DNA from: Natrialba magadii ATCC 43099
GTDB taxonomy: Archaea > Halobacteriota > Halobacteria > Halobacteriales > Natrialbaceae
DNA: 64,000 nucleotides
Direction of reading: 5' to 3'
NCBI RefSeq assembly: GCF_000025625.1
Contig: NC_013922.1
Span: 1,240,001 to 1,304,000 of the forward strand
The notes under the pieces are model-generated. The model searched no databases, had not been told where the DNA came from, and was given only the letters and a program-made list of their open reading frames with translations. Numbering within the stretch: position 1 is the stretch's first letter; every line of letters starts with the position of its first letter. Shown here one piece after another: positions 49,526-52,395 of the stretch. The translations under genes were made by a program, and so were the position numbers.

Positions 49526-50239
49526 TCACGTATTCGAGTCGCCGGCCGGCGGCATCACCGCTGCAACTGCTCGAAGCCACGCCTCAAAATCGTCGCCAGC
49601 AGCGGCTTCCAGCGCGGCCGAGGCCGCGCCGGTCGCGTCGACGCCGCAGTCGAACGCCTGCTCCACGTCCTCAGCGGTTCGAATGCCGCCGCCGACGAAG
49701 ACCCTGGTTTTCGACGATTCGGCGGCGACGAACTCGACGAACGACTCGAGTCCCTCCGGATCCGATCGCACCATGCCACCCTCGGAGGCGATGTCCGCGG
49801 GCTGTTCGAACAGCAGGCAGTCCGGCGCGGGGTCGAACGCGAGCGCCGCCGCGGCAGTCTGGTGGTCCGGGACGCAGACGATCGATTCCAGTCCGAGCGC
49901 GTCGCAGCGCTCGATGAGTCGGCCAACGGTCCCAAAGGTGTCCTCGTTCTCAGGGTGATTGACGAAGACAGCGTCAGCGCCGGCAGCGGCGACCGCCTCG
50001 CAGGTCGCGTCGCCGATACTCGCATCTTCGTGACGGACAGCGGTCTGGGCAACGATCGGAAGCGTGGTCTCCGACGCGACGAGGCGTATATCAGGAACCT
50101 GTGGCGCGAGCGCGAACCGGCGCTCGGTGTCGTCTGCGACGCGTTCGACCGTCGCCGCGAACTCACGAAGGTCGTCGCCGACGACCTCGGGGTTGGTCTT
50201 GGTGTTGACCAGAAAGAAGGGGTACTCGAGTTCGGACAT
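49526..50239 (-). CDS. triosephosphate-isomerase-like protein lacking the catalytic histidine
   Basis: A 237-residue TIM-barrel protein alignable by eye with archaeal triosephosphate isomerase along its length. Matching elements are the start FFLVNTKTNPE (Lys retained), LAPQVPDIRLVA, VFVNHPENED, SIVCVPDHQT, and VFVGGGIRTAEDVEQAF near the end. The AQHVD segment holding the catalytic His is replaced by AQTAVRHED, and the VEPPELIGTG segment with the catalytic Glu reads FEQPADIASEGG (Glu retained, loop altered). It is therefore probably not a normal TIM; a different isomerase or lyase reaction is possible. The start at 50239 matches the family. Confidence 0.72.
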   Translation of the reverse strand: MSELEYPFFLVNTKTNPEVVGDDLREFAATVERVADDTERRFALAPQVPDIRLVASETTLPIVAQTAVRHEDASIGDATCEAVAAAGADAVFVNHPENEDTFGTVGRLIERCDALGLESIVCVPDHQTAAAALAFDPAPDCLLFEQPADIASEGGMVRSDPEGLESFVEFVAAESSKTRVFVGGGIRTAEDVEQAFDCGVDATGAASAALEAAAGDDFEAWLRAVAAVMPPAGDSNT

Positions 50240-50356
50240 ACCCACACATTCGATGGGGCGGTGTATCGCAGTTGTGGTCAACGCCGTTAGAAGAAACGAC
50301 TGCAACCAGCAGGAGACGGCCCGACCTTTAGGCGTCAGTTCCCCATATCGGATGAT

Positions 50357-50596
50357 ATGGCAGCAACGCTAACCGACGACGAGGTTGGAAAGACGGTCGT
50401 CGACGCAGAGCAGAAGGAACTCGGAATCGTCGCGAAGGTCGACGGCGGCCGCGCTTACGTCGATCCCAACCCGTCCGTCGCCGAACACGTGATGGCCGCA
50501 GTGGGCTGGGAAGGCGAGGACGAGGAGGACTACCTCGTCACGGAGGATATGATCGCGTCAGTCGGCGACGAGATCGTGCTGCAGGGCGATCTGTGA
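50357..50596 (+). CDS. PRC-barrel-like small haloarchaeal protein
   Basis: A 79-residue acidic protein beginning MAATLTDDEVGKTVVDAEQKELGIVAKVDGGRAYVDPNPSVAEHVM. The pattern of short beta strands (GKTVVDAEQKELGIVAKV, AYVDPNPS, DEIVLQGDL) resembles a PRC-barrel half, a fold that stores or binds RNA-processing or photosystem-type ligands. Function is unknown. Its stop is five bases from the terminal hairpin of the IS200/IS605 remnant, so the element inserted exactly behind it. Confidence 0.7.
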   Translation: MAATLTDDEVGKTVVDAEQKELGIVAKVDGGRAYVDPNPSVAEHVMAAVGWEGEDEEDYLVTEDMIASVGDEIVLQGDL

Positions 50597-50600
50597 ACTA

Positions 50601-50650
50601 CCCTACCCTACTCGCTCACGGCTGAGGCCGTTCGCTCGTTGAGGGTAGGG
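50601..50650 (-). terminator. terminal hairpin of the IS200/IS605-type remnant
   Basis: CCCTACCCT (50601-50609) pairs with AGGGTAGGG (50642-50650), and inside it ACGGC pairs with GCCGT around TGAG. It overlaps the tnpB stop codon at 50608. In IS200/IS605 elements, the region at the tnpB 3' end encodes the guide (omega) RNA and the right end, so this hairpin probably marks that end. Confidence 0.6.
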
Positions 50651-51501
50651 CTTCCTGCTTCCACGACGCGCTTTGCAGACACGGAATCGGTGTCCGTAGG
50701 GAGCGCAGTCTCCACAGGCGTTCGAAAATCACTGCGCGATTTTCGCAGCCCATCAGAATCGCACGGCGATTCTGAGGACGTTGATTCGGAGTGTCCCACT
50801 CCTATATCTTCGAGGCCGCGAGAAAGGATGTTCCACGCTGCATTCGCGTCCCTGTCCGCCTCAAACCCACAGGCAGGACAAGAGTGTTCACGAACCCACA
50901 ACGGCTTATCTGTCGAGACGCCGCACGCCGCGCACTCTTTCGTCGTTCCTCTCGGGTTGACCATCACGAAATGCGTCCCTTCACGCTTACACTTGTATTC
51001 GAGCAACGAGAGAAACGTTCGCCACGCCGCCGACGCCCTGTTGCGGCTGTTCGACGGCGAGTCCATCATCCCCTTCACGTTCAGATCTTCGACCGCCACG
51101 AAGTCGTACTCCCGAGCGTAGTAGTTCGAGAGTTTGTGCAAGAAGTCGCGGCGCTTACGTCGGAGGTCGGCGTGACACTCTGCGACACGACGCCGTTGCT
51201 TCTCGTAGTTGTTCGACCCGTGTTGCTTCCGCGAGAGCTTCCGTTGCTCACGTTCCAGCCGCTCCCGTTCGTCGGAGAGGTCCAACGACCCGATCGCTGC
51301 CCCATCGGTATCGTGGGCGTACTTGAGAATCCCCACGTCGATTCCGACGCACTGCTCGGGGTTCTCAGGCGGTTCGGGCAGTTCATGGTCCATTTCGACG
51401 CCGAACGTAGCGAACCACTCGCCCGTCGGCTCCTTCTTGAGCGTGACCTGTTTGAGTGCCGCATCGTCCTCAGAAACGCTCGCGTTTCTGATGGGCTGCA
51501 C
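50608..51501 (-). pseudogene. 5'-truncated IS200/IS605 (IS1341-type) TnpB
   Basis: A 297-residue fragment of TnpB, a transposon-encoded RNA-guided DNA endonuclease. The RuvC-like active site is complete: Asp in VGIDVGILKYAHDTDG, Glu in FVAVEDLNVKGM, and the final Asp in ADRDANAAWNI. The zinc ribbon is CAACGVSTDKPLWVREHSCPACG. About 100-120 N-terminal residues expected of full TnpB are missing. Homology begins near LKQVTLKKEPTGEWFATFGVE and is preceded by a hairpin module. The reading frame opens with GTG at 51501 in that module. No tnpA is nearby. Nuclease function without the N-terminal domain is unlikely. Confidence 0.88.
50714..50780 (+). repeat. double-hairpin module, copy A
   Basis: ACAGGCGTTC, then stem-loop 1 (CGAAAATC/GATTTTCG), then GCAGCCCAT, then stem-loop 2 (CAGAATCGC/GCGATTCTG), then AGGACG. 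It lies inside the 3' part of tnpB. Copy B at 51465-51526 has the same linkers in inverted orientation, with different stem sequences. Confidence 0.8.
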
Positions 51502-51526
51502 AAGAGCTTGCTCTTGTGAACGCTGT
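51465..51526 (-). repeat. double-hairpin module, copy B
   Basis: Read on the minus strand: ACAGCGTTC, stem-loop 1 (CACAAGAGC/GCTCTTGTG), GCAGCCCAT, stem-loop 2 (CAGAAACGC/GCGTTTCTG), AGGACG. It sits at the truncated 5' end of tnpB and supplies the fragment's apparent start codon. Stem 2 differs from copy A at one position on each arm, and both arms still pair. Confidence 0.8.
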
Positions 51527-51611
51527 ATCCCCTCCCTACTGCGCTACTCACTCACTCCGCTCGTTGCGTTGCTCCTTGAGGAAGGGGGCTTAGCGCCTCA
51601 ATTCAGCTAAA
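51527..51611. mobile_element. outer flank of the IS200/IS605 remnant
   Basis: This 85-nt segment holds ATCCCCTCCC and GAGGAAGGGGGC, which can pair imperfectly across ACTCACTCACTCCGCTCGTTG, and then GCGCCTCAATTCAGCTAAA. It looks like another folded element end abutting the stop codon of the coiled-coil gene at 51612. No gene is present. Confidence 0.5.
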
Positions 51612-52208
51612 CTACCTGTTTGTCTTGGTGCCGTCTCCGCTCTGATCACCGTCGTTCGCATCGCTCTCGTCCGCCGACTCCGCCGGATCGTCGGCCGACC
51701 CAGCCGCCGCAGCCGCCTCGTACATCGTCTCACGCTCCTCGAAGTACACCGGCGCATCGGTCTCCGCTTCGAAGCGAATCACTCGCTCGAGTGCAGCCTG
51801 TCCGTCCGCGGCCTCGGATTGCAACTCCGCAGCCAGATCGGTGTAATCGGCCGCGAGCTGCTGAAACGCCTCCATTCGCGTCTGTTTCGCCTCGACCAGA
51901 AACTGCTTTTCCTCGACATCGTTCTCGAGTGCCTCGATTTCGTCGAGGTCCGTCTCGTCCGTCTCAGAGCCGACACCGGTTGCACCTGTGGTTCCCGCCG
52001 ACGGGGTCGCCGTGCCGTTGACGCCAGAGGACTGGGACTCGAGTCGGGATCGGATTTCGGCCATGTCCTCATCGATGTCGTCGAGCAGGTCATCGGCCTC
52101 CTCGCGCATGGTTTCGACGTGGCCCGTGAGCAGTCCCGCCTGGGTTCGACAGTACTCGACGAAGTCGTCAACCGAGAGTGTGTTCCGACCGTCGCTGTCG
52201 TCGCTCAT
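51612..52208 (-). CDS. hypothetical coiled-coil haloarchaeal protein
   Basis: A 198-residue acidic protein. Residues about 10-60 (VDDFVEYCRTQAGLLTGHVETMREEADDLLDDIDEDMAEIRSRLE) and 85-150 (IEALENDVEEKQFLVEAKQTRMEAFQQLAADYTDLAAELQSE) form amphipathic helices likely to make coiled coils. They are joined by a Gly/Thr/Ser-rich linker (GVNGTATPSAGTTGATG). The tail is disordered and acidic. No family function is recognised. It lies divergent from uvrA with about 190 nt between starts. Confidence 0.7.
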   Translation of the reverse strand: MSDDSDGRNTLSVDDFVEYCRTQAGLLTGHVETMREEADDLLDDIDEDMAEIRSRLESQSSGVNGTATPSAGTTGATGVGSETDETDLDEIEALENDVEEKQFLVEAKQTRMEAFQQLAADYTDLAAELQSEAADGQAALERVIRFEAETDAPVYFEERETMYEAAAAAGSADDPAESADESDANDGDQSGDGTKTNR

Positions 52209-52395
52209 GAGTGGTCATTCGGGGTACCGACCGAAGATACTTTGGTCACCGCAGTTTCTCATGCCCAGTGCTAACAGCCACCACGACATTCAGGTTTCAG
52301 ACTCGTTAAGTTGCTCCGGCCACTGACACAACTACAATGAATCGAGCACCGTTGCTGCGACCGCTATTCTCACGTCAGCCGACGAGGAGCGACCG

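What the first reader, a model, noticed from the sequence alone, without database searches (positions are those of the whole stretch)
50714..51526. Inverted double-hairpin modules with covarying stems at a tnpB remnant
Copies A (50714-50780, plus) and B (51465-51526, minus) share linkers GCGTTC, GCAGCCCAT and AGGACG while their stems differ. Stem 2 is CAGAATCGC/GCGATTCTG in A and CAGAAACGC/GCGTTTCTG in B: a change on one arm is compensated on the other. Stem 1 is wholly different in sequence but pairs in both. This pattern indicates selection or copying of structure, not sequence. Copy B forms the apparent 5' end of the truncated gene.
Basis: seen in the sequence. Interest (0 to 1): 0.75.

Follow-up and report, generated by a model that had tools for sequence, protein, structure and literature searches.

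The report
Tiny mobile double-hairpin repeats in haloarchaea
The two odd DNA modules are copies of a very short, widespread repeat of salt-loving archaea that folds into two hairpins and inserts into genes, once in frame inside an apparently essential enzyme gene of this organism; it resembles a bacterial repeat class whose way of moving is still unknown.

Summary
Modules A and B belong to a dispersed 52-62-nt repeat: CG + hairpin 1 + short linker + hairpin 2 + GGACG. A covariance model finds it in 255 of 293 genomes of the order, 8 copies here and up to 52 in one genome. Stems covary strongly: 524 two-sided against 7 one-sided changes, with no excess of G.T over A.C mismatches, so the conserved thing looks like a DNA hairpin. 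It inserts after R-CG (61 of 64 sites). The clearest empty site is in tryptophanyl-tRNA synthetase: this genome carries a 60-nt in-frame copy that 12 of 12 relatives viewed lack. It is not a fixed part of tnpB. B is the scar of a deletion between two module copies, one at the transposon's left end and one inside tnpB; a second fusion crosses over elsewhere. Closest known kind: bacterial CGTC-tagged REP dimers, which also lack a known transposase; several of their defining features are not met. No RAYT in 293 genomes; no R1-type copies beside Y1 transposases. Mobiliser unknown. Literature searches found no haloarchaeal description; supplements were not searchable.

The parts
50719..50780 (+). 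Module A, CG...GGACG; the inserted unit is 50721-50780 (60 nt, in frame in tnpB, which is on the other strand)
   Evidence: empty site GAATCAACG|CCTGTGG in ISHma12-type elements
50723..50745 (+). A hairpin 1 (CGAAAATCA.../...CGATTTTCG)
50753..50775 (+). A hairpin 2 (TCAGAATCGC/GCGATTCTGA)
51465..51522 (-). Module B, CG...GGACG, product of recombination between a left-end module and a tnpB-internal module
51499..51518 (-). B hairpin 1 (CACAAGAGC/GCTCTTGTG)
51470..51491 (-). B hairpin 2 (TCAGAAACGC/GCGTTTCTGA)
50608..51501 (-). 5'-truncated tnpB (OrfB_IS605 and Cas12f1-like TNB domains), N-terminal part lost
51529..51589 (-). Left-end palindrome of the decayed IS605-type element (CCCCTCCC.../...GGAAGGGG), followed by GATACAG
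   Evidence: coordinates read by eye
50601..50651 (-). Right-end palindrome of the decayed IS605-type element (CCCTACCC.../...GGGTAGGG)
   Evidence: coordinates read by eye

Best explanation
A and B are copies of a non-autonomous small mobile repeat of haloarchaea: two half-repeats, each CGTYC plus a hairpin, in head-to-head inverted order around a short linker. This is the architecture of a REPIN or CGTC-REP dimer. Shown: dispersed copies, precise insertion after R-CG leaving CG on both sides, strong two-sided stem covariation, and gene truncation that fits recombination between copies. Inferred: it moves as hairpin-forming single-stranded DNA cut 3' of GRCG by an enzyme acting in trans, plausibly of the HUH/Y1 type, because the target resembles the element's own 3' end (GGACG) and no longer target duplication is seen. 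The window locus is a decayed IS605-type element whose tnpB took module A in frame near its 3' end. It lost its N-terminal coding part by recombination between a left-end module and a tnpB-internal module, leaving B. Confidence below is for the identity; for the HUH/Y1 enzyme alone I would say 0.4.
For: 255 of 293 genomes; 16-52 copies in each of 8 copy-rich genomes. Covariation 524 two-sided vs 7 one-sided. Empty sites: TrpRS in 12 of 12 relatives viewed; IS605 left end and tnpB 3' site; tnpB mid site. Target purine before CG 61 of 64 vs 46.5% background. Fusion: B left flank 86% to the G013 left end and right flank 93% to the G013 tnpB site; L016 is a second fusion with a different crossover. 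Named plasmid records with copies: 30.
Against: No transposase was found with it: no RAYT over cut-off in 293 genomes; of 32 Y1 loci none has an R1-type module and one has a related one; G013 has 10 modules and no Y1 match. Movement was not observed. The 64 sites are not all independent, and the covariation count is on an alignment fitted to the model.
Confidence: 0.8

Rival explanations
1. A structured RNA element (regulatory RNA, or part of the tnpB guide RNA) conserved for its RNA fold.
For: Strong covariation. Module A lies about 110-170 nt before the tnpB stop, near where haloarchaeal guide RNAs overlap tnpB (position as described in passages of PMC12558985).
Against: G.T and A.C mismatches are about equal once the closing pair is set aside, 5 vs 7, whereas RNA selection should favour G.U on one strand. 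Copies sit on either strand, in unrelated genes and contexts. No relevant Rfam match.
Confidence: 0.07
2. Members of the Haloquadratum SMR/PATE class: small mobile repeats or terminal-only IS605 derivatives.
For: Haloarchaeal, transposase-free, often inside IS605-type elements; mobilisation of SMRs is also enigmatic (passages of PMC3119063).
Against: SMRs are about 80-110 bp with terminal inverted repeats. Here 52-62 nt with two hairpins. The ends of the IS605 elements that I viewed do not match the module. The SMR sequences are in supplements I could not read.
Confidence: 0.12
3. Stem covariation is produced by mutation, not selection: template switching between hairpin arms copies one arm onto the other. 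This concerns the cause of the covariation and can hold together with the best explanation.
For: Very few one-sided intermediates. Hypervariable inner stems and loops at one orthologous site, with A.C intermediates in A itself.
Against: Outer stem 2 (CAGAA/TTCTG) and linkers are nearly invariant, which needs recognition or selection. Recombination between copies also swaps whole stems.
Confidence: 0.2

Closest known systems
CGTC-tagged REPs, HH dimers (Di Nocera 2013, PMC3733652; abstract, sections 6 and 17 part 1, and passages read)
   Same: CGTC-like tags at both outer ends, hairpin halves head to head, heterodimers, intragenic copies, no associated transposase
   Different: Described in bacteria. 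Stems there begin with A/T pairs, loops are 4-5 nt and the tail is CCA. Here half 1 has tag CGTT, stems begin with C-G (half 1) or T-A then C-G (half 2), and the linker is CAGCCCA, GAGCCAAT or others.
REPINs / GTAG REPs with RAYT (PMC3116915 search listing only; PMC6006769 passages)
   Same: Two inverted hairpin repeats as a small mobile unit
   Different: Tag GTAG and a linked RAYT gene; neither found here
Rickettsia palindromic elements RPE-4 and RPE-6 (as described in PMC3733652)
   Same: Palindromic repeats in frame inside protein genes
   Different: Bacterial and of different sequence
SMR and PATE elements of Haloquadratum (PMC3119063, passages)
   Same: Transposase-free haloarchaeal repeats that often sit inside IS605-type elements
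   Different: Longer, with terminal inverted repeats or IS605 end palindromes
ISHma12/ISHmu6-type IS200/IS605 elements
   Same: Host of the window insertions; the tnpB remnant belongs here
   Different: The module is an optional insertion, absent from several of these elements

Membership tests
CGTC-tagged REP dimers | Unpaired CGTC tag at the outer foot of each half | tested here: inconclusive
   Half 2 carries CGTC(C), nearly invariant; half 1 carries CGTT(C), a variant not named in the section read
CGTC-tagged REP dimers | Stem 8-9 bp with A/T pairs at the first two positions | tested here: not met
   Stems about 8-11 bp, first pairs C-G then A-T or G-C (half 1), T-A then C-G (half 2)
CGTC-tagged REP dimers | Loops of 4-5 nt | tested here: inconclusive
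   Loops vary, mostly about 2-5 nt depending on where the stem is ended
CGTC-tagged REP dimers | Tail after the stem fitting CCA | tested here: inconclusive
   Linkers CAGCCCA, GAGCCAAT and TGCCAAT contain CCA but not directly after stem 1
CGTC-tagged REP dimers | Mostly head-to-head dimers, often heterodimers | tested here: met
   All 81 elements listed; the finder requires two hairpins, so single halves were not counted
CGTC-tagged REP dimers | Intragenic copies | tested here: met
   In frame in trpS, tnpB, an FAD oxidoreductase gene and a two-repeat protein
CGTC-tagged REP dimers | No flanking transposase gene of its own | tested here: met
   32 Y1 loci: 0 with R1-type modules, 1 with a related one; gene clustering around 179 loci shows tnpB and IS240-type genes, which the modules interrupt
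GTAG REPIN with RAYT | GTAG tag and a RAYT gene in the genome | tested here: not met
   Tags are CGTT/CGTC; NF047646 over cut-off in 0 of 293 genomes
Haloquadratum SMR | 80-110 bp with terminal inverted repeats | tested here: not met
   52-62 nt with only short CGTYC/GRACG ends
Haloquadratum SMR | Sequence identity with an HqIRS family | not testable with these tools
   Sequences are in supplements (no supplement look-ups allowed)
RNA family (Rfam) | Match to a curated model | tested here: not met
   No match to the modules in 50200-52300 at E up to 1

The most novel reading that the evidence does not exclude
An order-wide archaeal REPIN-like mobile DNA, recognised by hairpin shape plus short linkers rather than by stem sequence, moved after GRCG by an enzyme other than a RAYT, and inserting in frame into essential genes. 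Finding its enzyme in a tractable haloarchaeon would answer how CGTC-type repeats move at all.
Probability: 0.45. Interest if true: 0.75.

Novelty: new variant of a known kind. Interest (0 to 1): 0.62.

Why it matters
CGTC-tagged repeats were reported from bacteria without a known mobiliser (PMC3733652). A related family in most sampled genomes of an archaeal order that has tractable laboratory species makes that question directly testable. It also gives in-frame insertion of a palindrome into a single-copy aminoacyl-tRNA synthetase gene, and shows how repeat copies can mediate decay of tnpB genes.

Tried and rejected
Rejected: a fixed part of tnpB coding sequence (empty sites and non-tnpB copies). 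Insertion into palindrome loops as a general rule: arms of 8 or more flank 7 of 97 sites against 1.1% of control CG sites, so only a minority. RAYT as mobiliser. A dedicated neighbour gene. Presence in viruses: 0 matches in viral contigs and 0 phage records. A search outside the order gave 6 weak matches among genomes listed as same phylum only (E 9.5e-5 to 6.1e-4), not followed up.

Limits: copy counts are capped at 18 scored candidates per genome. One search used the best 112 of 138 rows (102 unique). One search was given 99 sources, fewer than half of the real loci then held. Searches use my own finder, which misses the G148/G208 subfamily and treats related sites as separate unless their flanks are equal. 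In-frame test: of 62 site classes, 12 of 29 in long ORFs are in frame and 4 of 33 elsewhere; long ORFs in G+C-rich DNA are partly spurious, and several insertions in transposase genes are out of frame. IS6/IS240-type naming for L037 and L030 is by eye or recall; L039 is Pfam-supported. Mechanisms of IS608, ISDra2 and similar HUH elements are recalled. The TrpRS alignment break is a sequence alignment; no structure was predicted.

Full report
Check of the observation. The inserted unit of A is 50721-50780 (+); B runs CG...CG at 51465-51522 (-). Both fold better than dinucleotide shuffles. The linker-plus-stem-2 pattern occurs 47 times in 24 of 61 genomes of the window and its relatives, and 0 times when read backwards.

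What it is. Thirty-two distinct copies gave a 60-position covariance model. It finds 8 copies in the window's genome, matches in 255 of 293 genomes of the order, and 16, 17, 19, 20, 36, 45, 46 and 52 copies in eight copy-rich genomes. In a phylum sample of 246 genomes, 39 of the 45 genomes with a match are in the order; the other 6 are weak. A module query matches 30 named plasmid records, for example Haloterrigena turkmenica pHTUR02 and Haloferax larsenii pHl5678-1, and no phage record. Architecture: CG, TT or TC, hairpin 1, linker, hairpin 2, GGACG; subfamilies vary linker and end. Adjacent copies in one genome overlap by two bases, apparently sharing the CG.

Covariation. On the 32 copies, 119 cells change on both sides and none on one side. 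On 138 model-aligned copies (128 distinct), 524 change on both sides and 7 on one; that alignment is fitted to the structure. Among the best 112 rows (102 unique) there are 1706 Watson-Crick cells, 12 G.T, 7 A.C and 6 others. Seven of the 12 G.T are at the closing pair, leaving 5 against 7. An RNA-level constraint on one strand should favour G.U, so the data point to a DNA hairpin or to arm-to-arm copying. At the A site of related tnpB genes, 11 distinct versions show the inner stem changing in place, with A.C intermediates that include the window's own copy A.

Insertion. In tryptophanyl-tRNA synthetase (NF008928), with one match in this genome at E <= 1e-60, GCGACG|ACGACGAG is interrupted by 60 nt, adding 20 residues in frame. 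All 12 relatives viewed, of 30 found, have the empty site. The extra residues fall where the alignment to a solved TrpRS (3a04) breaks and resumes (query 458/479, chain 316). IS605-type elements show an empty and a related filled left end, and empty tnpB 3' sites; tnpB mid-site empty forms are. Of 64 distinct sites, 61 have a purine before CG against 46.5% of background CG, so the target resembles the element's own end. Other in-frame copies: tnpB at three places, an FAD oxidoreductase gene and a 233-aa ORF with two copies. Out-of-frame copies interrupt other tnpB and transposase genes, so in-frame placement is probably survival, not targeting.

Own genome contexts: three copies in tnpB genes, one in TrpRS, one in a Pfam-supported IS240-type transposase remnant, one in a similar remnant by eye, and two unassigned, one of which is a weak match.

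The window locus. In G013 (L010, L029) one IS605-type locus carries separate modules at its left end, inside tnpB and at the tnpB 3' end. In the window the left flank of B matches that left end (86%; 55% to the internal site) and the right flank matches the internal site (93%; 59% to the left end). L016 shows the same kind of fusion (73% and 91%) with the crossover between the two hairpins instead of after the second. These look like two deletions by recombination between module copies, and explain why B is the apparent start of the truncated gene.

Mechanism. Best guess: single-stranded, hairpin-guided movement by an enzyme in trans, cutting after GRCG. Precise insertion and the site preference are shown; the enzyme is inferred. 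RAYT is absent over cut-off in 293 genomes, and no Y1 locus among 32 carries R1-type modules. This parallels the bacterial CGTC repeats, for which the authors found no dedicated transposase (PMC3733652).

Literature. Searches found no description of this repeat in haloarchaea. RepRanger (PMC12306157, passages) sampled other archaea. The nearest haloarchaeal work is PMC3119063 (passages), whose repeat sequences are in supplements that I could not read. Novelty is therefore a new variant of a known kind, not proof of being undescribed.

Noticed in passing
L003 1473-1534 (+), G000 C1:1724686-1724749: In-frame 20-residue module insertion in the only tryptophanyl-tRNA synthetase gene found in the window's genome.
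   Followed up: yes
L009 1473-1534 and about 1563-1617: A trpB-like gene with an in-frame module and, close behind, a second related hairpin insertion that keeps the frame but contains a TGA stop.
   Followed up: partly
L215 1312-1375 and 1501-1564: One 233-aa ORF carries two in-frame modules at matching positions (ADELG|V) of two helix-turn-helix-like repeats; no Pfam or NCBIfam match.
   Followed up: partly
L257-L276 (genome G211): Many copies share flanks beyond the module (CCCGG...ACGCAAGC), so they lie inside a longer repeat of unknown kind.
   Followed up: no
L237-L256 (genome G148): A subfamily with linker GAGCCAAT and end TGATGACG lies in a larger repeated intergenic unit (GGGACTCAAAGGGGC...GTAAGCACCGCAG).
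   Followed up: no
L191 2347-2407 and L194 2097-2156: A more symmetrical relative (CGTTCAC...GTGAACG, linker GGCTAA) at the left end of IS605-type elements, with empty sites in sister elements.
   Followed up: partly
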